From Neonectria sp. B-13 (Eukaryota > Ascomycota > Sordariomycetes > Hypocreales > Nectriaceae), in assembly GCA_002682825.1 (NCBI GenBank), contig NOKP01000009.1, forward strand, positions 496,001 through 560,000: DNA of 64,000 nt. Reading direction: 5' to 3'. Under the pieces are notes generated by a model, which saw only the letters and a program-made list of their open reading frames with translations, was not told the DNA's origin and made no database searches. Position 1 is the first letter of the stretch. Each line of letters opens with the position of its first letter. Position numbers and translations under genes: made by a program. Shown here piece after piece: positions 2,146-26,344 of this stretch.

Positions 2146-3421
2146 CTAATACAGGTCGTCGTATGTATAACACAAGAAGTCGTTATGAATGTCCATCAAG
2201 TTACGGATTGTTACCGTCGTCTTCGTCGTTGTGCCAAAATGAACTGTGTCATCCAGTGTAACATTGCGACCTTTCTGATTAGTCCAGTCATGAGCTTCAA
2301 CAGGACCGGATATATCAGTCAGTCGCCCTGGTAGGTTCCGCGACTGCCATGACCACCAGACACGGTCCAAATTAGCATGATGAAGATAGAAGAGAGGGTC
2401 GCCAGCTGCAGTAGACTCAGGTTAGTCAATCAGGATCAATCGGACAGCAAGCAGAACAAACATACGACTGCTATAAACATCCGTGATAGTGCCATATAAT
2501 CCCCCAACACCAGGATGGCCAGCTGAATGCAGTGAGGTTTCCGATGAATTCATGAACAGTCCAAAGTTGCCCTTGGCCAGGTTCTCGTCGACCATCTTCT
2601 GGTTGCCCCACCGCATGAACACGTCTGGGACAAAGTCTCGTCGAACACACCAAGGATTGTAGGACACGTTGAATCCAGGCCCCATGTGAATCGTCATGTT
2701 GGCAAATGGTCCGTCCGGTATACACCCACCGCCTGTTCGACCGCTTAGGTCATAGGGCAAGCCGGCAGCTGTGAACGGTACCCCTGGCTCTAGGTTCTCC
2801 ACAGTGCCGGGAACCCAGGCGCCGTTGCCTCCGAATCCGAACTTTGGGTCAAACACGACGGACTCGAACATGGCTTCACGGGAGACGGCGTCGATGGTCC
2901 AGTCCCAGTACGGTTGGGCGCCCCGGAAGCCACAATCTCGAATTTCGCGTTCATATATGCGGATCAACATCCGATGCCATGGGTAAAAATATCCCTCGGT
3001 CTCAGTCAGCAAAAAATACAGGCGTCCAAAGAGGCGTGGCTCCTCACAGTGAAGTGATTTGCGCTCGTCTGAAGAATGTGATCGCCGAGGAAATCTTCAA
3101 ATCGATTCGTGACACCAGGCATGTCGCTCTTTGAAGTTCTTGGCTTCTTATGCATCAAACATTTGACAGCCTTCATGTATGAATTCTGTTCGTGATGCGA
3201 GAGAGAGCGCCTAAATTAGAGACCGTTAACCTTCCGTGCTCCTTGTCACAGAGATGAGACCCAGCGTGTTAGTGCAAGACTTACCATTCCTTTCGGACAA
3301 TGGGCTTGGAACATTTCGCCTTTGACGGCAGCAGCGACGCGCCAGATGTCTCTGTAGTTGGGGCAGCGTTGAGGGGTACGCCCAGCCACAGCATGAAGAG
3401 AAAGATTAGCCAGTTCTTCAT
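2146..3421 (-). CDS. Secreted tyrosinase (polyphenol oxidase)
   Basis: This is a type-3 copper enzyme that oxidises monophenols and diphenols to quinones, probably outside the cell. The model has four exons: 3421-3285, 3210-3048, 2994-2466 and 2405-2146 (introns of 74, 53 and 60 nt), giving 362 residues with phase closing throughout. The start at 3421 is chosen because it opens a signal peptide ([14 protein letters not shown]); an upstream in-frame ATG at 3532 would bury it. The CuA site is HILQT, then NHF and PWHR, the second and third histidines being brought together by splicing at [11 protein letters not shown]. The CuB site is SLHSAGH plus the [12 protein letters not shown] signature. 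The short length fits the small secreted fungal tyrosinases without a long C-terminal extension. No disruption is seen. Confidence 0.9.
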
Positions 3422-7796: not shown

Positions 7797-9479
7797 TCAG
7801 AATGAGATCTCGCTCAGCCGGAACAAAACCTTCTCGATAAACTTCAACCCAATCAAAATCCCATCCTCGTCTTGCAACTCACTCTCTCCGCCAAAGTCCG
7901 CATTTCCTTCGTCAAGGCAGGTAAGACAGTTAACCACGACAGACGTATACTTATCACCCATCCTCATTGGAAGTTTGGACTGGGCAAGAATGACCAGATG
8001 ATCCTTGACCAAGGGGAAAGGCTTAGAGTCTAACGTCTCTTGCTTGAAGTCATTTATCTTCAATCCCAAAGCCTCGCTTGGCGAGACCTCGATTTTTCCA
8101 TCATCTGCCTCGTACTCGACAAAGCTCATCCATAGTCCAAGCTCCAGCAAACAAACCCCTAGGCTATACAAATCATGCTGCATCGAGTATTTATCTTGTG
8201 CGCGAACTCCCTGACGAGATGGATGTCGATACAGGTTTCGTTCCCATGCAACATCGCCTCTGAGAAGAGTATGGAAGTTCACGCTGCGAAAGGAATCGAA
8301 GCCGAGCACGTAAGCATCGCCGAGAAGCTTGCTGTTGCCCAAGGTACCGTCGCTAGGAAACAATAGAATTGTCTCTGGTCGAATATTCTTGTGAACAAAG
8401 TCACAGGCGTGCACAAAACTGACGGCTCTGGCAAGTTGCCTTGCGACATTCAAAGTATCCGTCAGACTGAAAGTTGACGGCTGCATCAGTCGTTGCCTTA
8501 ATGTCATAGGAACGCCCTCTGTTGGCATACAAAAAACCAAGTCTAGTGATGCAAGTCGCCGCGTTTCTAGATCTTTCCTTTTGACGAGCCCATGGCATGC
8601 AAGGAGACCGAAAACGGCTGTGTCAGCTTGGCTTAACTTCTTGACCAAGTCCTCTGTGTCTGCCCTGGCGGCGGGGACGTCAAGGTTTGAATCGCAGAGG
8701 ATTGTATCGACAAGATATATTTTTGAAGAGCCAGTTCGCCGAACAAGTCGCGTTTTGGAAAACGGGATAGATGTTGCATTGTCCCAGTCTAATCCATTCT
8801 GAAGAAGGGATATGTGTATGTTCGTATCCGGCGCGCTCTTCAAGACATTGCGTAGGGACTGCGCCGCGGTCAAAGTATGACCGATATTGGTTATTGGAGT
8901 GTCTGTCGAGCGTAAGGAGGAGCCCGAAATTGAACTAGACTGTAACTCGGTGGCCAGTTCTACATCGACGAGTTTGTCGTCGATTCGAAGCATCAGGTAC
9001 CAGCTAGGATCAAAAAGACGTTGCCATAGTTGCAGTTGAGATACCGTCTCGTCGAGACCTTCACGGACCAAAAAGAGCTTCCACTTCTTGACGCCATTGT
9101 CGGGAGGCTTTTTAGAGATGGACTCAAATTTGGTCACCGCTATTATCAGCTTACTTCTGAGCATCTCAAGAACCTCAAATTGAACCCTGCAATGCTCTTT
9201 GTCAAGCGTCTTCGTGATACGCTTGACGAAGTCGATCTGAGTAGCTGTTCGACTCCATATCGCCTCTACTATTAGGATTTTCTCCTTGACAGATTCGTCG
9301 GCATTTTTGAAGTCTTGATACAGCCCGACGAGCCTCTTACCATATCTGCACACGGATTAGCGCTCACGGTCTTGGTGGTTGCTGCGGGTCTTTGTTGCTC
9401 TTTGACCTTGAATTTGAGTTACTTACTTGAGGCAGAGATCCGCTGCAGCGACCACCGCAAGGATCAATTCGGCGCTCAT
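7797..9479 (-). CDS. HeLo-like domain fused to a pseudokinase (MLKL-like architecture)
   Basis: Two exons (9479-9427 and 9345-7797; 81-nt intron) encode 533 residues. The N-terminus (MSAELILAVVAAADLCLKYGKR) and following helices to about residue 150 match the fungal HeLo/HeLo-like four-helix cell-death domain. A kinase-fold domain fills about residues 200-533 but lacks catalytic residues. No glycine loop or VAIK lysine can be found, the HRD motif is HKN (336-338) and DFG is replaced by GFD (366-368). The helix-F region (HDLYSLGVCLLELG) is kept, so the fold is probably preserved. Mammalian MLKL has the same order: four-helix bundle, brace, pseudokinase. The likely role is a membrane-acting cell-death executor switched by its pseudokinase; that is inferred from architecture. 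It is divergent from the active kinase at 9932 with a 452-bp shared promoter. Confidence 0.85.
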
Positions 9480-9931
9480 TGCTTCTTGAACGCTACCCAG
9501 ATTGTTCCAAAGAAGCTGCCAAAGCGTTCGGATGATGATGGAAAGCGTGGAAAAGACAAGGACCAAAGAAACCGCCAAGTTGAAACGAGGCTCGGAGTCG
9601 GGTCTCGGAACATAATAGAGGTGCATGAATACGCCACAAGCATATGTGCCTCAGGCAAGCAAAGTAAGCAAGTGACCAGGCTTGATCTTCTGTTACCACA
9701 GCCTTAAGCACCCCACCTAGAGTTCTCTCTTTCGACCATCGGGCCAGAATCAGTGCCACTTTGGTAACACGCTTCGGATACACCACAACAACCTCCTCTC
9801 AGCTAATACACCGAAAATAACAGCATTATTGAAGCCCTTGAATCCAATTTAGGGCTTCCATCGCGACTACCTCGCCCATAACGCCACGAAACGCCGTGCT
9901 GTGACTAAAGCAACCCGAGCGGGGCACGAGT
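9480..9931. promoter_or_regulatory. Shared divergent promoter of the HeLo-pseudokinase and kinase-RING genes
   Basis: 452 bp lie between the two start codons (9479 minus, 9932 plus). No other gene fits, so the two genes probably share regulatory sequence. I see no clear TATA box. ORFs crossing this region are antisense or out of frame and lack features. Confidence 0.45.
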
Positions 9932-12443
9932 ATGCCTCGTGAGAAAGCCCAACTCTCCGATCTTGTTCGCGATTCCAAACTCCAGACCACCTTCTTTGAA
10001 ACCTACGTTCAACATGTTTTCCACGATTCGGGACGATCGGCGGGCGAACGCCGCTTGCGCAGAGAGGAACGCTGGACGAGGCTGAGGTTCCTAGGCCACG
10101 GTACATATGGAATGGTGTACCTGGAAAGGTGCACAGACGATGGGAGTGACAGACTTAGGGCTGTCAAAGAAGTCAAGAAGTCCGTTGTCTCAGGACAGGA
10201 TTTGGACTATTATCAGGAACTTGAGGCGGTCATGAAGTTCTCACATCCCAATGTGCGTGCCCATGCCTTATTGCTGGTCAAGAACCAAGAATCCTAATGG
10301 GAAAGCAGTACATTCATTGCTTTGTGAGCTCACATGGGTGGTTTGAACGTGATGATACCGTTTTCATTACGATGGAGTTCCTAGAACTTGGCGACCTGCA
10401 GCGCCACCTCACTCAACCGCTACCGGAACTCCAAGCAAGACAGATCACAGAGCAAATCCTGGAAGGCTTGTCGTTCATGCACGACAACGGGTTCATTCAC
10501 CGGGATTTAAAGCCAGGAGTATGAACTGACTGCTGATTGTGTCATTAATATCTTGCTAACATGGTTGTTCAGAATGTCATGGTTGTTGGAAAGGAGCCGG
10601 AGTGGTTTGTGAAAATCACAGATTTTGGTATCAGCAGGAGGAGACATAACGATGTTACCAGTACTCTAACCGTCCAGCGTGGTACGCTTGGGTTTGCTGC
10701 CCCAGAGGCCCTGGGTGTTATCCTGGAAGGGCCCTACACCTTCTCGGTGGACCTTTGGTCGCTCGGAGCTGTGGCGTACAGGATACTGACAAACACCACT
10801 CCCTTCCAGAACCTGGGCGATTTGTTCCAGTATGCACATGGGATGGTTGATTTCCCAACCGCCCAACTGGCCTCATACCGAGTATCACGACAAGGACAGG
10901 ACTTCATCTTGAAACTCATGCGGGCACGCCCTGACGATCGACTGTCTGCAATATCGGCTGCTCAACATCCATGGATGACTACGCCTCTTGTCTCCACCGA
11001 TGATACCAAAAAAGGGTAAGTAGCAAGCTCTTTCATTTGAATTAGTGATTGAACTATGCCTATAGACGCATCCTTGAGACTTGTGAGACGGAGTCAATCA
11101 GAAATACGTGCAGCACAGTAGCTTCAAAAGCATGGAGCAGCGGAAGCAAAACTGCTGTATTCTCCCGACCAACTGTCAAACAGACTGCTTCACAGTTTCT
11201 AGAACCCCTCGCTGTGGAATCTTGCACAGACGAGAGAATTACTGCTGAAAGCGTAATGTCACCAGACAATTCCGGGCATACAACAACTGAAAACCAACAC
11301 CATCAGCCTACTGCACAGCCTGAGTCTGAGCCTGAGTTTTCAAGTTCATCATACTGTTCCTCCGAAAGAGATACTAATCAAGACCAAGAGAGAACTGTTT
11401 GTTTGCATGAAACGACCACTGTTCCCATCTGGTTGGAGATAGCTCGGGAAGAAGACAACGAATTGCAGAGCCTAGAAGACGTCCCCAATAAATATGGGGC
11501 GAAAGTGCAAGATGGACCTCTTCGCCCAGATAAGCCGTCTATTGGATTGGGAAACGAAAGCATGATGGATATAAAAGTATGCATCGAGGAGACTGCAGCC
11601 ACTAGTGAAAAAGGCGCATTGACGCCCAACACCAAGACAATATCAGCTGTGGGTACCAAAACCCAGAATTTGAGATCGGTTGAAGACGACGATGGGGACT
11701 CTCAATTGGGTCCCGAGAGCTCTACGCCTAGTAAACAGGGTGGAACTGAAGAAATGTGGGTAAACATCCGTGTTCATCGTCGTCTTCAATGTTCTGATGT
11801 CGCTAACCACATTAGAAACGCCATGGTAACGGGAACCAGCTCCAAGCGTACCTGCGACCTCTGCAAGTCAGAGACAATATCTGGCCACGGTCAGCTTCTT
11901 CTGTGCGGTCATTATATGTGCCATATATGCCTCATTCAACTCTTGGCTCTGTCACTTGCTTCCCCAAAGTATATGCCGCCTCGATGCTGTGGCAGCAAGT
12001 CAGGGGAAATTAGTGCGCCGATTTTCTCGAGGCTGGTCCACCCACCCATCTTCACTGCCTTCTCACAACTTCGGGAACTCAAAACTCGAAACGAGTGGAC
12101 ATGTCCCAAGGGACATCCGCCGGAAGGTGGCTCACTTTCAATGACTACTCATCCGATCCCAATTTGGCAAGAGAGCGTAAGTTGCGGTCGATGCTCCTAT
12201 GCACTAGGGTTCTTGCTACACAGAATACGGACGTTTTGCTTCTTCTGTTCAAGAACAACACACACCAGACCTGTATGCAAGAAATGTGCTTATGGTTTGG
12301 TCGTTTGGCCTTTTTTAAAAGAGCTGGAGGACAATGGGATGTTGACTATTCCTCGGATTAAATTAGCCGTCAAGTTAGCTCGGCGTAGCAGGGCTGACAT
12401 GAAACATGGAAAGGAAATTCTATGCATCCCTTTGGACAGCTAA
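9932..12443 (+). CDS. Ser/Thr protein kinase fused to a RING-like Cys-rich C-terminus
   Basis: Four exons (9932-10252, 10309-10518, 10573-11015, 11066-12443) encode 783 residues. The kinase domain (about residues 48-320) is catalytically complete: glycine loop GHGTYGMVY, VAIK lysine in RAVKEVKK, alpha-C glutamate in YYQELEAV, HRDLKPGN created by splicing, DFG, and an APE motif (FAAPEA). A low-complexity linker of about 260 residues follows. The C-terminus has a RING-like CDLC...LLLCGHYMCHIC...CC pattern starting near residue 587, then further CxxC/CxxH pairs (SCGRC, FCFFC, VCKKC). This suggests one protein that both phosphorylates and may act as a ubiquitin ligase; the RING assignment is by cysteine spacing only. 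It is divergently paired with a HeLo-pseudokinase, a plausible substrate. Confidence 0.85.
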
Positions 12444-14809: not shown

Positions 14810-16009
14810 TCATGCGCTGATTATCTGTGCTTTCCGTTCAAAGAACTCGCCTATCTTGTGCTCGAAAGGAGCAAGGGGATGCTCCTCACCTAAGCCTAAG
14901 TCTTTGAGCTTGTACCGGGGGTTCGTGGTGTGCATGGCCATGTAACCTCTGATGCTCTCGTTCCAGGACTGTGCGTATATACCCCTGCCCTTGAGGATTT
15001 CCTCGACCCTTCTTGCAGCCGTGATGGTCTCCTCGTTCACCTCCTCTAGAACGGTAATGATCGACTTCCCCGTGCACGTAGCGCGGTTGTGGAGGTAGTT
15101 TCTCGTATCCCCGCCCAGCTCCTCCTTGTAGAATCTACCAGACGTTAACGAGCTGTTGAGGACGACAGACTGGGGTACTCACGATAGCACATCGTTGGAG
15201 ATGTCGATAAACTTGGCCATATCCGGGATCGCCTCCAGGAAGGCTCCAACGTCAGGGTAGAGCGCTTTGGGGTAGCAAAATACGGAGTAGGCGACGTTCA
15301 TGCCTGACATGTCTCTATAGAAATGGGGGAACTGCTCGCCCGCCTTGGTAACGGACATGTTCTGGAACCCATCGTGTCGCTCCAGCGAGTTGCTCGTAAG
15401 GAATTTAAGAACGGAGATCTGTAGCAGGTTCGCCATGACGGGGTCGAAATGGACATGCGCCTCTCGGATCAGGCCTGCGATGCCCTCGAGGAGGTTATTC
15501 GGCTGGGTCTCGCCCTGGAAGAACCGCTGCTGGAAGAGGAGGGCCTCCTCGACCATCTCGTTGCTCTGGCCTACAATGTCGTCGAACTGGACGACGAGCC
15601 AGGTGAAGAGCCCGACGTATCCCTGGACTTCAACGGGATGATTGGGGTGAGCCAGCTGGGCTGGTGTTAGCAAATACATGACGTCTCGCCATACAGGGGC
15701 ATTTCAACATGCCAGTCCTTCGGCATAGCCTAGGCGAAACCCTTTGGCAGAGATGGCGGTGTCAAGGGGCACGCCGATCTCGACGGCCCTCTTGTGCATG
15801 ACCTCGAGCAGAGCTTCAACGGCCTCGCCTTTGAGTTTGGGGGCGCCGGGATAGTTCAACTGCTCCAGCATCTGGGCGCAGATCGGCCCGACGAGCGAAG
15901 CGAGACGCTCAGGCTCCTTTGCCAGGAGCTCATCGCCTAGAACAATGTGGTTCCGGAAGAAGACGCCCCATAGGGCCGTGGCGGCGGTGTGAATGCCAAA
16001 GTTAAACAT
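14810..16009 (-). CDS. Trichodiene-synthase-like (TRI5 family) sesquiterpene cyclase
   Basis: Terpene cyclases of this family ionise farnesyl diphosphate and cyclise it. Three exons (16009-15709, 15660-15183, 15134-14810; both introns 48 nt) encode 367 residues, close to the usual TRI5 length. The Mg-binding NSE motif is intact (NDVLSFYKEE) and is assembled across the second intron; a C-terminal RY pair (NPRYKL) is also present. The aspartate motif reads QFDDIVGQ, so the third acidic residue of DDxxD is not where expected. The first intron uses an unusual donor (GTTGAA); without splicing, exon 1 runs into an in-frame TGA at 15704-15706. The acceptor (CTAACACCAG) is textbook, and the spliced protein reads smoothly through EVQGYVGLFTW. 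No P450 or transporter is adjacent, so a full biosynthetic cluster is not evident. Confidence 0.8.
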
Positions 16010-17871
16010 GGTTTTGCGTATGGAGTTTTATCCGCAGAGGAGTATTCGTATAGGTCAGGTAGCGTGGCTACGCTTTGAAGGTCAAGGATCAGAAGAGTGA
16101 ATAAAGCTGGGAAAAAGCAACCTCGAGGATTAGGGCGATATGAGCACAGACGGAGGGCTAAGTATGATATGAAACGCTCGACACGGGAGAATCCCCGGGA
16201 AAGAGGAAGGCCTACGGCGGCTACGCAAGGAAGGGAAGTGGGTAGCGGAGTGGTTTCCTGGCCTAATGGAGCGCTCTGGCCGACGCACGTCTGGAGTGAG
16301 GGTGGTCAGGATGATGCTAATGCCGTTGGCCGCAGTCTGTGCAGCAGTTGAAAGGAGCACAGGTGGGCACACCCACCTTGGGCACGCTCGTTGGCAGTCT
16401 TCATGACGAACTGGCGCAATACAAGGAAGTACGCGGGCTCGAGGCGGATCTTGTCCTGGTTGAAGGGTGGCGATCCACTCGAAGATGGGACTCTGCAACG
16501 ACCTGGCCACTTGCCATATATTAGCCCCGCCGGGATCCTGGTTCCGAGGACGAGCTACGGACTATCCGTACAAGTGCAGCAGACGACACGTGCACCGTGG
16601 CACTGGCGTGGTGTGCGAGTGTGAGGGGGGCTCGAGGCGAGGTCGACGACGCGAGCTAGTCTAGCAGAACCGGGGCAGATGAGGCCGCAACTGGACGGTT
16701 CCTTTCGTGGACGGCCAGCCAGACATCTCTGAAGCCCGAATCCAGATCGATACTGCTCTGCCGTGATCACTGCACGCCGCTGGCTTACAGCAGGGGTGCG
16801 GAATCTCGCCTCCAGGGCGGTGGTAACGAACGCTTCCGACGCCGTGGTGGCGGGCCGTCCACAACCAACAGAACCGCCAAAAGGGGGTGTGTACATACTA
16901 CATGCCACGCGCCGCATGCAAGCATCTGGCAAACCTGCTGGGCCTTGGCACGGAAGTGGGCTGGGCCGGGGTGCCGCGAGCGCTAGAGACACACTACTCC
17001 AGAAGATGCCATGATCGTCTCGCAGGATGGGACTTGGGGACCACAGCAGGGACCCTGGGCGCAATTTGCTTCACATACCGGCAAGATTGCTTTTTTGCTG
17101 CTCAGTTTGTCACTAAACAAATTGCTCCCGCGTCCACACAAGTCCGAAAATTGTCCCCTCCCGGCGAGAGCAGCGAGTGGATGTCGTGGGGCAGCCCAGT
17201 TAGATGGCCTCATTCCGCGGCTGAGGCGCTGTTCTAGACTTCGAGAGGGAATTAACGGGGCATCTCCCACGCTACTACTCCGGGCTGTGTCTGGGTTTGT
17301 AGAGTTTGCAAGGGATGGTGAGTGTGTTCTTCGTACATGGTACATAGCACTCGATACAGGCTCACTTCGCTGCCATCCATGGGAGCTGCACCTCGAAACC
17401 TGGTAGGTAGGTTATTAGCAGTCCGCAAGGCGCTCGCCGAGACATTCGCAGACGGCGCCGAGGAATGCTGAGCAGCAGATTGTCGCTACTTGGCGGCCGG
17501 GACGCGGCCCTGGGCTGGCTGGGAGCTCGTTCCTGATGGTTCACGCTGGTGGCCATCATCCCTGCGGCCTGGAATGCACGCCCGGTAGCTGGCTCAACCG
17601 AAAGCAGGGCAGGATGCCTGCCGGAAACGCATGATGGGTCGTTCTAGGTATAAACGCCGGCATCCCGCCCTGTGCGTCCGCAGTCTCGGGTTGCATTGGT
17701 GCTTGTCGGTGCTGGAGGAGATGCCGCCCAACAGTGAACAAGACCCCTGCTATCTGCCGTCTGCCAACTGAGAGAGAGAGAGTGAGAATCCATCGTCCTG
17801 CAGCTTCAAACCAACAGTCGCACAGTCACAATCGCGGACGCGGTGGGATCATAGCACCATAGCATCATAGG
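16010..17871. other. Intergenic, GC-rich, nothing recognised
   Basis: Many overlapping open frames occur on both strands (for example 16130-16510, 16555-17064, 16983-17345), but they are Pro/Arg/Ser-rich readings of GC-rich DNA without domains. The region holds the upstream sequences of the terpene cyclase and the HET-domain gene. Confidence 0.5.
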
Positions 17872-19150
17872 ATGGGCCTCACCTACAGACGCCTCGACCC
17901 CCTGAGGCGAGAGATCCGCCTGCTGGAGATCCAGTCGGCACGCAACCTCAACGACGCCGTCGAGTGCCGCCTGGTCACGACCTGCCTGACCGACGACCTC
18001 GAGTACATCGCCCTCTCGTCCCTCTACGGCGACGCAACCGACACGGACAAGATCCTGGTCAACGGCCGCCCCATCACCATCACCACGCACCTCACCCAGG
18101 CCCTCAAGCACGTCCGCGCCGTCTTCTACCCGACCATCTCACAGCGCTTCCAACGGAAGCCCGCTAGGCGCCCGCATGGCGCGCCCCGCTGGCTAAGGCA
18201 TCTCTTCGGCATAAGCCCGCAGTCTAGAGACGGCGATGTCTTGCGGCCGCGGGCGCTACGGGTGTGGGTGGACTTGCTGTGCGTCAACCAGCGCGATGAG
18301 TTCGAGAAGTCGAAGCAGCTCGTCGAGATGCGACACATCTATCGGTCCGCCGAACTCGTCGTCGGCTGGCTGGGCCCCAAGGGTGAGCACACCGACGTGG
18401 CCATGGCGACGCTGGCCGAGATCGAGGACGCCATGCCGCCCCGCTGGGGAGATCCGGGAGACCGGGAGAGGCATCCGGAGGACTACTCGCCGACTCACAA
18501 GTGGGCACAGTCGATAACGCACATCTGGTCCGCCGGGCCCGACGGCGAGATCCCCTTCATGATGCCGCACTGGGTCGGCTGCAACGACTTCATGACCCGC
18601 CAGTACTTCCAGCGCCGATGGATCCTCGAGGAGACCGCCATGGCCCGGTTCCCGTCCTTCCTGATCGGCGATACCATCGTGCCGTGGAAGCAGGTGCTCC
18701 GCCTGAACCGGATGATGGAGGAGTTCAAGTATCATCCGTCGGATGTGTTTCCAGCTGTACGTGACCTAGACCGTCTGCGCGTTGACCTTGTTGGCTTGCA
18801 TCTTGCATCTCGCATCTGAGACAAACGAGTGACTGTGCTTGTGATCTGCATCCAAGTCAAGAGTACACTACACACGGCTTGCTTGTATCCGAGGTCCAGT
18901 GCCGCTCGTTAGCTCACCTCCGAGACCCAATGCTCGCTGACTGCCTCATCGCTCACATCCGAGACAAAGACCCCATCGCTAACTCGTTTCTGAATAGGAA
19001 CTGAGCGCCATGATCGCCGATCTGCCCTTGGAAACCGCCCACAAGCTCCTCGACGAGTTCGCTAAGAGAGAAGCGCTGGAGGATGCCCAGATTCTCAAGG
19101 AGACGGGGCGTAGGCCGAACTCTGCATCCACCCGGTCTACCGATAATTAG
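17872..19150 (+). CDS. HET-domain (heterokaryon incompatibility) protein
   Basis: Two exons (17872-18756 and 18998-19150) encode 345 residues, with a 241-nt intron that is long for this window. The HET domain starts near residue 43 with YIALSSLYGD. It continues through the conserved core LRVWVDLLCVNQRDEFEKSKQLVEMRHIY (here about residues 125-155) and the LVVGWLG block, and ends with the YFQRRWILEE motif. HET domains trigger cell death on non-self recognition in fungi; many are fused to sensor repeats, but this protein has almost nothing beyond the HET domain, so it may be a stand-alone effector or a shortened copy. The second exon adds a 50-residue helical, charged tail. Confidence 0.85.
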
Positions 19151-24856: not shown

Positions 24857-26344
24857 ATGGAAGGAGTTGGCCTCGCCATCGGGATCATTGGGCTTGCAGG
24901 CCTCTTCAGAACCGCCCTGGAGGCATGGGAGTTCGTTGACAGCGGCCGGGACCATGAAGAGAATTTTCACTGCTTCAGTACGAGGCTGGACAACCAGCGT
25001 GCCATCTTCCTGATATGGGCCGAGAGGCTGGGGTTTTTCTCATCAGAGGGATACACGACCAGTCTCAATTCCCCAACTTGGCGAGCCCGACAAATTACCG
25101 ACACGCTCCAGCAGATTGTTCTTCTCTTCTCCAACACCGACCGTTTGGTTCAACAGTATGGGTTCAAGATTCACCAGCAACAGGCCCCTGCACTGGGAAA
25201 TCTATTCGACAACGACTCGTCCTCCATACAAAGAAATCCACCTTCCGCAGTATTCAGAAGCAGATACATCCGGTTACAAGCCGTTGTACGCAGAGAGCGT
25301 CAATCAATGCGACAGCAAGATACCACCTCGTTCTGGAAGAAAGCGAAATGGTCCATTCGGGATGAGAAGAAGGCGACTGCTTTGCTTACCCAAATTGTGG
25401 CGCTTGTCGACGACCTCGACAAGTTGACTCGCGATATTCAAGCCGCCAAAGCGATAGAGCAGTATGCAGCTGAAGCTGTAGCAGAGGTCAGCGAAGATGG
25501 ACTTTACAGAATCGAGAAGAGCTCTGTGGTGGAGAAAACCGTCATATCCGATGCCGCAAGTATTCGCCTCAGCTTGATTCATGCCCGGACAATCGACACG
25601 TCCAGTACTACATCGGCGACTTTCATGACTGCCGAATCGCATCCTTCGTCACACATAGAAGTCCAAACTTCACGAGACGAGGAGGGTGTGAATGTACGGA
25701 CTTTATTGTTCTCGGATATTGAAGCGACCAATCGTCAAGTTTGCAAATACATTTTGGCTGGGTTGCCGCCTGAGCCTTTGGTCACTAATGAACCTTATGA
25801 GCCCGGGAAATGGGCCAGGAGGCGTATCAAGATGGAAATGAAAACCTGGACTGATCAAACAACCCCGAATGGATGGTTTACCATCACGCCCATAAGTGAA
25901 TCGCATTTGGACAAATTCCTCGGTACTTTCTGCGGCCCAGAGGGCACCCCGTACGAAGGGGGTATTTTCCATGTTCGATTCAATGTCACTGGGGGATATC
26001 CATTTCATCCGCCCCAGGTGTGGTTTCTGACAATGATATTTCATCCTAACATCGATAGATACGGTGCTGTTTGCATAAGCTCCCTTTCCAGGACACTTGA
26101 TGACGGCTCGTGGTCACCGTCGTTGACTCTGGAAAAATTGCTGATCAGTGTGGCGTCACTGCTTGACGAACCAGCCTGGGATAACCCGATTGAGACCGAA
26201 ATGCCCTTGAATTGGACATCGGACAAGGAGTTATTCAAGGCTCGAGCGATTGAATGGGCGCATAAGTTTGCCACGGGAAGGATCATAAATCCGGATGAAC
26301 GAGATGATGGATTCTACAACGTGACCGATGTTACTGAGTACTGA
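24857..26344 (+). CDS. HeLo domain fused to an E2 ubiquitin-conjugating (UBC) domain
   Basis: A single exon encodes 495 residues. The N-terminus (MEGVGLAIGIIGLAGLFRTA) and following helices to about residue 210 match the HeLo domain of HET-S-type cell-death proteins. A complete UBC fold occupies about residues 320-480: PYEGGIFHVRF, YPFHPPQVWF, the HPN motif (396-398), the catalytic cysteine Cys406 in GAVCISSL, then SWSPSLTLEKLLISVASLLDEP and DNP. All residues needed for ubiquitin transfer therefore appear to be present. The start is firm because the HeLo signature begins at the first residue. The predicted role is to couple a membrane or cell-death module to ubiquitination; HeLo proteins usually end in an amyloid or effector part, so an E2 here is unusual. 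It is convergent with the sirtuin, 273 bp away. Confidence 0.88.
   Translation: MEGVGLAIGIIGLAGLFRTALEAWEFVDSGRDHEENFHCFSTRLDNQRAIFLIWAERLGFFSSEGYTTSLNSPTWRARQITDTLQQIVLLFSNTDRLVQQYGFKIHQQQAPALGNLFDNDSSSIQRNPPSAVFRSRYIRLQAVVRRERQSMRQQDTTSFWKKAKWSIRDEKKATALLTQIVALVDDLDKLTRDIQAAKAIEQYAAEAVAEVSEDGLYRIEKSSVVEKTVISDAASIRLSLIHARTIDTSSTTSATFMTAESHPSSHIEVQTSRDEEGVNVRTLLFSDIEATNRQVCKYILAGLPPEPLVTNEPYEPGKWARRRIKMEMKTWTDQTTPNGWFTITPISESHLDKFLGTFCGPEGTPYEGGIFHVRFNVTGGYPFHPPQVWFLTMIFHPNIDRYGAVCISSLSRTLDDGSWSPSLTLEKLLISVASLLDEPAWDNPIETEMPLNWTSDKELFKARAIEWAHKFATGRIINPDERDDGFYNVTDVTEY

What the first reader, a model, noticed from the sequence alone, without database searches (positions are those of the whole stretch)
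7797..12443. Divergent HeLo-pseudokinase and active kinase-RING genes: a fungal layout resembling RIPK-MLKL
The sequence shows a HeLo-like helical domain followed by a kinase fold lacking the glycine loop, VAIK lysine, HRD (HKN) and DFG (GFD), next to a divergent gene whose kinase retains every catalytic motif. In animals MLKL (four-helix bundle plus pseudokinase) is activated by an adjacent-acting kinase, RIPK3; HeLo-like domains are known relatives of the MLKL bundle. The inference is that the two fungal genes form a kinase-executor cell-death pair with its own RING module.
Basis: partly seen in the sequence, partly recalled or inferred. Interest (0 to 1): 0.88.

Follow-up and report, generated by a model that had tools for sequence, protein, structure and literature searches.

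The report
Fungal MLKL-like pseudokinase and kinase pair
Two neighbouring fungal genes that point away from each other encode a probable membrane-attacking protein with a dead kinase domain and a working kinase with a zinc-finger tail; the pair keeps recurring, which suggests a cell-death switch built like the animal RIPK3-MLKL pathway.

Summary
Gene A (minus, 533 aa) has a helical N-terminus and a pseudokinase; gene B (plus, 783 aa) has a complete kinase and a RING-type finger; 452 bp separate their start codons. The pairing is not chance: in 8 of 10 other assemblies with comparable locus tags the homologues of A and B bear consecutive numbers, and in the window's own genome three paralogous A/B pairs, plus three distant A-like genes beside other active kinases, lie head to head. 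Catalytic residues are lost family-wide in A and kept in B. A modelled ortholog shows a four-helix bundle, brace helices and a kinase fold, the MLKL layout. A threonine in A's flexible activation segment is kept in 119 of 121 sequences: a candidate switch site. Best reading: the kinase phosphorylates a HeLo-like pseudokinase executor. Linkage, motifs and layout are shown; phosphorylation, membrane attack and death are inferred. HeLo membership of A's N-terminus is not proven. HeLo-like/pseudokinase proteins are already in print; seven searches showed me no account of a kinase partner.

The parts
9427..9479 (-). Gene A exon 1 (start ATG 9479; hydrophobic start of helix 1)
   Evidence: N-terminal residues conserved in homologues
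7797..9345 (-). Gene A exon 2 (rest of helical domain, linker, pseudokinase, stop)
8991..9479 (-). Gene A N-terminal four-helix-bundle region (residues about 1-136; interrupted by the intron)
   Evidence: AlphaFold2 models of the ortholog P0001 (pTM 0.84) and of window residues 19-206 (pTM 0.66)
7800..8783 (-). Gene A pseudokinase domain (about residues 206-533)
   Evidence: Weak Pkinase match; kinase fold in the ortholog model; profile match, probability 100, to the pseudokinases of six other loci, four of them HeLo proteins
8385..8393 (-). HKN in place of HRD (residues 336-338)
   Evidence: catalytic Asp in none of 121 aligned
8295..8303 (-). GFD in place of DFG (residues 366-368)
   Evidence: Gly in 121 of 121
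8268..8270 (-). Thr377, candidate phospho-switch in the activation segment
   Evidence: Thr in 119 of 121, kept in the three paired paralogues; residues 376-379 of the ortholog model have pLDDT under 50
9480..9931 (.). 452 bp between the two start codons (shared intergenic region)
9932..10252 (+). Gene B exon 1 (LSDLVRDSKL N-terminal motif, glycine loop, catalytic Lys)
10309..10518 (+). Gene B exon 2 (to HRDLKPG)
10573..11015 (+). Gene B exon 3 (DFG to the end of the C-lobe)
   Evidence: Pkinase 3.7e-53 over residues 49-312
11066..12443 (+). Gene B exon 4 (linker, RING-type finger, second Cys-rich region, stop); possible in-frame intron 11756-11815
11853..11993 (+). RING-type finger C-x2-C..C-x-H-x2-C-x2-C..CC of gene B
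   Evidence: Pattern in 22 of 48 sequences scanned; weak RING family matches in homologues
12183..12287 (+). Second Cys-rich region of gene B (CxxC at residues 698, 716, 729)
   Evidence: CxxC at similar spacing in some homologues there

Best explanation
The two genes form one functional unit, a two-gene cell-death module. Gene B is an active Ser/Thr kinase whose variable C-terminus (here a RING-type finger) senses a trigger or is recruited to it. When engaged, B phosphorylates gene A's pseudokinase in its short, flexible activation segment, most likely at Thr377. The pseudokinase then releases the N-terminal four-helix bundle, which oligomerises and permeabilises the fungus's own membrane, as RIPK3 does with MLKL. 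Shown here: gene structure, conserved linkage, recurrent head-to-head layout in this genome, family-wide inactivation of A and retention of B's active residues, bundle/brace/pseudokinase layout, conservation of Thr377. Inferred: phosphorylation of A by B, membrane attack, death, the trigger, that the C-terminus is a sensor, and that the RING is a ubiquitin ligase.
For: Consecutive locus tags of A and B homologues in 8 of 10 comparable assemblies, with all eight B partners outside the clade of other kinases in the B tree. Three further head-to-head A/B paralogue pairs in the same genome and three distant A-like genes (L004, L005, L006; two with Pfam HeLo) head to head with active kinases that have ankyrin repeats in the same ORF (L005) or in the next ORF of the same strand (L004, L006): 7 of the 14 distinct A-like loci have a kinase on the divergent side; rough chance estimate about 1e-12. 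A's pseudokinase is homologous to pseudokinases of HeLo proteins. Catalytic residues lost in A, kept in B. Model: helices 3-28, 35-64, 67-95, 105-136, two short helices, kinase fold. Thr377 in 119 of 121. [quoted passage not shown] passages).
Against: No functional data. A's N-terminus matches no HeLo profile at E<=1, hhalign against seven HeLo domains of this genome gave probability 2.8, and the fold searches are inconclusive. Seven of the 14 A-like loci have no divergent kinase (one, L007, has a tandem one); by comparing coordinates, only 3 of 20 distinct Pfam-HeLo genes have one (C66, C72, C96); of 8 B-type kinase loci that I picked, 3 face neither an A-like nor a HeLo gene. The tails of the paired B paralogues L001, L002 and L003 match no Pfam domain, so 'sensor tail' is not supported there. 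F. nematophilum has A and B 43 tags apart and Cylindrodendrum on different contigs; many species with A have no B in the capped list. L010 pairs a B-type kinase with a HeLo gene in which no pseudokinase was found, so the pseudokinase is not obligatory for the association. Orientation outside this genome could not be tested.
Confidence: 0.5

Rival explanations
1. Poison-antidote arrangement: A is a constitutively dangerous membrane-targeting protein and B restrains it by phosphorylation and, in this copy, by RING-mediated ubiquitination; tight linkage keeps the two together.
For: Tight, conserved, head-to-head linkage fits a poison and its keeper as well as a receptor and its executor; the RING could mark A for degradation.
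Against: No RING pattern in the ORFs of the paralogous pair loci; A's own pseudokinase is a plausible inhibitory domain, as in MLKL; three B-type kinases of eight examined stand without A.
Confidence: 0.18
2. A is a pseudokinase scaffold or allosteric activator of B (as STRAD is for LKB1, recalled), and its helical domain only anchors the complex at a membrane; the pair signals in growth, fusion or stress, not death.
For: The nearly invariant C-lobe stretch of A (RNLYRHPxRQG..MQHDVYSLGVCLLE) could bind B.
Against: Distant paralogues in the same head-to-head layout carry Pfam HeLo domains at 5e-23 (L005) and 2e-41 (L006), a class described as pore-forming; L010 pairs a B-type kinase with a HeLo gene in which no pseudokinase was found.
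Confidence: 0.2
3. The neighbours share a promoter but act in separate processes; the linkage is frozen ancestral order.
For: Short shared intergenic region (452 bp).
Against: The same kind of pair recurs at unlinked places of one genome with strongly diverged copies, which frozen order alone does not predict.
Confidence: 0.08

Closest known systems
MLKL with RIPK3 (animal necroptosis)
   Same: Four-helix bundle, brace helices and pseudokinase in one protein; a separate active kinase; a Thr in the activation segment (MLKL details partly recalled)
   Different: No sequence link between A's bundle and MLKL was found; B has a RING-type tail, and no RHIM search was made; the genes are adjacent here; function untested
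Fungal HeLo-like (HELL) proteins with kinase/pseudokinase domain
   Same: Architecture; [quoted passage not shown]
   Different: The passages that I saw name no partner gene; here an active kinase gene is the recurrent head-to-head neighbour
nwd2/het-S, fnt1/hellf, pnt1/hellp two-gene clusters (NLR plus HeLo or HELL executor; passages of PMC7885112 and PMC12881547)
   Same: Adjacent receptor and membrane-executor genes
   Different: The partner gene is a kinase, not an NLR; the executor ends in a pseudokinase, and no amyloid motif was looked for
Protease/gasdermin two-gene clusters of fungi (passages of PMC12881547)
   Same: Adjacent activating enzyme and pore former
   Different: Activation would be by phosphorylation instead of cleavage; unrelated folds

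Membership tests
MLKL-like executor | N-terminal four-helix bundle plus brace before the kinase fold | tested here: met
   Model of ortholog P0001: helices 3-28, 35-64, 67-95, 105-136, then 142-147 and 175-186, pTM 0.84; the window fragment 19-206 has matching helices, pTM 0.66
MLKL-like executor | Catalytically dead kinase domain | tested here: met
   HRD Asp in none of 121, DFG Asp replaced by Gly in 121 of 121; by sequence only
MLKL-like executor | Activation-segment site phosphorylated by the partner kinase | not testable with these tools
   Candidate Thr377 conserved in 119 of 121; no phosphorylation data
MLKL-like executor | Membrane permeabilisation and death | not testable with these tools
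   No experiment
HeLo / HELL / MLKL bundle superfamily | Sequence or fold relation of the N-terminal bundle to a superfamily member | tested here: inconclusive
Fungal two-gene regulated-cell-death cluster | Conserved adjacency of activator and executor genes | tested here: met
   8 of 10 comparable assemblies; paralogous pairs. That they act as activator and executor is not tested
Fungal two-gene regulated-cell-death cluster (known types) | Activator is an NLR or a protease | tested here: not met
   B has only kinase and weak zinc-finger matches in Pfam
RIPK family | Active kinase domain | tested here: met
   by sequence only
RIPK family | RHIM motif and RIPK-type kinase phylogeny | not tested
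   No RHIM search and no kinome-wide tree was made
RING finger ubiquitin ligase | C3HC4-type cysteine/histidine array | tested here: met
   Pattern in 22 of 48 sequences, window included
RING finger ubiquitin ligase | RING profile over curated cut-off | tested here: inconclusive
   Only weak or sub-threshold matches

The most novel reading that the evidence does not exclude
Fungi have a third class of two-gene cell-death system beside NLR/HeLo and protease/gasdermin: kinase receptors, in which an active kinase carries a variable sensor tail (RING here; ankyrin, WD40 or TPR in relatives, as in NLRs), head to head with a HeLo-like pseudokinase executor that it switches on by phosphorylating its activation segment. 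It would be a fungal counterpart of RIPK3-MLKL with the kinase itself as the sensor, present in several paralogous copies in one genome.
Probability: 0.35. Interest if true: 0.9.

Novelty: new variant of a known kind. Interest (0 to 1): 0.76.

Why it matters
The published link between fungal HeLo proteins and MLKL rests on the bundle and on amyloid motifs (passages); in the searches I saw no fungal counterpart of the kinase step. A conserved, repeated kinase/pseudokinase-executor pair makes that step testable with two adjacent genes and one predicted phosphorylation site. It also points to possible new allorecognition or antiviral loci in Sordariomycetes, and offers a way to ask whether kinase-triggered membrane killing is shared by fungi and animals by descent or arose twice.

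Tried and rejected
Search of the RING part of B alone (residues 570-783) found no homologue at E<=0.001 among 565 candidates. I first read this as lack of conservation; the full-length search and the motif scan showed that the finger is conserved but too divergent for a word search.

The C35 locus (L017) looked like a further pair in the hit lists, but a zinc-finger-like ORF lies between the pseudokinase and the kinase, so it was dropped. L007 (HeLo-pseudokinase and kinase in tandem) was not counted as a pair: the orientation differs, and its kinase looks like a housekeeping type (recalled). Two fragments (C54:254286, C39:5223249) are kept among the 14 loci as misses. Mirror copies on palindromic contigs were counted once. 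L008, L013, L014 and L015 carry pseudokinase-type genes with no divergent kinase found. The other 10 of the 11 DUF7580-only loci showed none by the regular expression and profile; this is a narrow test (the expression missed the kinase in L017).

Of 20 distinct Pfam-HeLo genes (26 rows) only C66, C72 and C96 have a kinase on the divergent side by comparison with the kinase lists, which are lower bounds. So most HeLo genes here are not in such pairs.

Not in print, as far as searched: the listings (the last found 0 papers) showed me no paper recognisable as describing a HeLo-pseudokinase gene paired with an active kinase. I read passages of PMC12881547, PMC10197012, PMC9815663, PMC12258605, PMC5485727, PMC7885112, PMC7849911, PMC3689799, PMC4835503, PMC3937382 and PMC12394161, no paper in full. 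Subscription papers and preprints are not held; Daskalov et al. 2016 (PNAS) was not available. The fungal kinase lineage FslK (PMC3937382) was set aside: catalytically complete and not detected in 62 ascomycetes. A kinase-encoding incompatibility locus (vic4 of Cryphonectria, recalled) could not be checked; the passages of PMC7849911 say nothing of its kinase.
Full report
WHAT IS THERE. The window lies in an unnamed fungal genome (60.9 Mb, 123 contigs); the best-scoring named relatives of both genes come from Cosmosporella, Fusarium and allies. Gene A runs on the minus strand, exons 9479-9427 and 9345-7797, 533 aa. Gene B runs on the plus strand, four exons from 9932 to 12443, 783 aa. Their start codons are 452 bp apart.

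GENE B. A full kinase (Pkinase 3.7e-53); 14 motif residues (glycine loop, Lys, Glu, HRD..K..N, DFG among them) are each present in 26 of 26 aligned homologues, a selection from the 120 listed. The C-terminus holds a RING-type array; the pattern C-x2-C..C-x-H-x2-C-x2-C is in 22 of 48 sequences scanned, the window included. Pfam RING families match weakly in up to 12 of 26 homologues, and IBR in one (0.00039). The sequence resembles the first RING of fungal RBR ligases (recalled).

LINKAGE IN OTHER FUNGI. The protein database gives no genomic context, but locus tags do. Among the 120 listed homologues of A and the 120 of B, ten assemblies have comparable numbered tags. Consecutive numbers: Cosmosporella sp. 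VM-42 (046070/046080, numbered in tens), Fusarium solani (NW759_015936/015935), Neoarthrinium moseri (009528/009527), Neopestalotiopsis clavispora (g11018/g11019), Cercophora sp. LCS_1 (7211/7210), Aphanocladium album (07045/07044), Lecanicillium saksenae (g4279/g4278), Hypoxylon texense (002692/002693). Misses: F. nematophilum (008783/008740, same listed contig length, 43 tags apart) and Cylindrodendrum hubeiense (different contigs). Eight more species have both genes on contigs of identical listed length, distance unknown: Annulohypoxylon maeteangense, A. truncatum, A. moriforme, Rostrohypoxylon terebratum, Pestalotiopsis sp. NC0098, Purpureocillium lavendulum, Magnaporthiopsis poae, Colletotrichum truncatum. 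Xylariaceae sp. FL1651, Truncatella angustata and Endocarpon pusillum are in both lists with different contig lengths (for the last two the tags suggest different assemblies). Many species with A have no B in the list; as lists and lengths are capped, this counts neither way. All eight tag-adjacent B partners fall outside the supported 39-row clade of other kinases in the B tree; of the eight same-contig partners, the one of C. truncatum falls inside it. Both trees are quick trees with some long branches.

PAIRS WITHIN ONE GENOME. Searches of the window's own genome with A and B and profile scans of 10-kb loci show three more head-to-head A/B pairs: C41 (L001), C2 (L002) and C1 (L003), with A 42, 35 and 44% identical over the main matched stretch. 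Three more distant relatives of A are head to head with other active kinases: L005 (HeLo 5e-23 plus DUF7580; partner 1265-aa ORF with kinase and ankyrin repeats), L006 (HeLo 2e-41 plus pseudokinase; kinase ORF followed by ankyrin ORFs on the same strand) and L004 (N-terminus without Pfam match plus pseudokinase; kinase ORF followed by an ankyrin ORF). Whether kinase and ankyrin ORFs of L004 and L006 are one gene was not resolved. Of the 14 distinct A-like loci (mirror copies counted once, two fragments included) 7 have a kinase on the divergent side; from 141 kinase matches in 60.9 Mb and a 5-kb reach I estimate p = 0.006 per locus and about 1e-12 for 7 of 14. This is rough: the kinase list is a lower bound, includes split and mirrored matches, and related loci are not independent. 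Of the 8 B-type kinase loci that I picked (window, L001-L003, L009-L012), 4 face an A gene, one (L010) faces a HeLo gene (PF14479 2.5e-20) in which no pseudokinase was found, and 3 face neither. Of 20 distinct Pfam-HeLo genes only 3 have a divergent kinase, so the association belongs to a subset of HeLo genes.

THE TAIL OF B VARIES, BUT ITS ROLE IS OPEN. The RING pattern is in the window's B and in orthologues, and in no ORF of the 16 paralogous loci scanned. The tails examined in the three paired paralogues (L001, L002, L003) and in L011 match no Pfam domain. P0147, in the window B's own clade, has ankyrin repeats, as has P0208 next to L010's kinase in the tree; L009's kinase is followed by an ORF with SH3 and VHL matches. 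In the precomputed Pfam column, 24 of 120 relatives carry such tails: 13 WD40/beta-propeller, 5 TPR, 4 SH3, 2 ankyrin (my reading of accession numbers; some entries are truncated). Ankyrin, TPR and WD40 are usual C-termini of fungal NLRs (PMC12258605, passages). This fits a sensor role but does not show it; because the paired paralogues lack a recognisable sensor domain I lowered the novel reading from 0.40 to 0.35 on checking.

HOW IT MOST LIKELY WORKS. B is triggered and phosphorylates A; A's pseudokinase releases the bundle; the bundle attacks the fungus's own membrane. The most specific prediction is Thr377 of A: Thr in 119 of 121 sequences, present at the same spacing in the three paired paralogues, and inside the stretch 376-379 with pLDDT under 50 in the ortholog model. 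Everything from phosphorylation onward is inference. Rivals are poison-antidote and kinase-scaffold models.

COMPARISON WITH WHAT IS KNOWN. HELL domains in proteins with kinase/pseudokinase domains, and clustering of fungal cell-death genes in twos and threes, are stated in a 2025 review (PMC12881547, passages); NLR/effector and protease/gasdermin gene pairs are described there and in PMC9815663 (passages). HeLo domains are enriched among genes induced during incompatibility in Podospora (PMC3689799, passages). I found no description of a kinase partner for a HELL-pseudokinase in the searches named under Tried and rejected. So: a new variant of a known kind (two-gene cell-death cluster), which would work like RIPK3-MLKL if the inference holds, without being shown to be a member of that family.

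VERDICT.

Noticed in passing
24857-26341 (+): ORF with a strong HeLo domain (PF14479 2.9e-37) fused to a ubiquitin-conjugating (E2) domain (PF00179 2.2e-34): a HeLo-E2 fusion about 12 kb from the RING-bearing gene B.
   Followed up: partly
17863-18816 (+): HET (heterokaryon incompatibility) domain ORF, PF06985 1.1e-19; with gene A and the HeLo-E2 gene, three genes of cell-death type lie within 19 kb.
   Followed up: partly
G000 contigs C114, C41, C50, C72, C47, C95, C105, C54, C57: Matches come in mirror pairs with constant coordinate sums: long stretches of these contigs are palindromic, probably fold-back assembly artefacts. The window's gene pair appears twice on C114 for this reason, and the genome size is inflated.
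   Followed up: partly
L009:5837-7714 (+): ORF next to a B-type kinase with SH3 (6e-11) and VHL beta domain (2.2e-06) matches, an odd combination.
   Followed up: no
L010:6525-7247 (+): HeLo ORF head to head with a B-type kinase; on the kinase's strand follow ORFs with ankyrin-like sequence (by eye) and a masked stretch. No A-type pseudokinase profile hit in the 10 kb.
   Followed up: partly
15179-15703 (-) and 2422-3096 (-): Terpene-synthase-like ORF (TRI5 0.00026, below cut-off) and a tyrosinase-domain ORF (1.5e-21) on either side of the pair.
   Followed up: no
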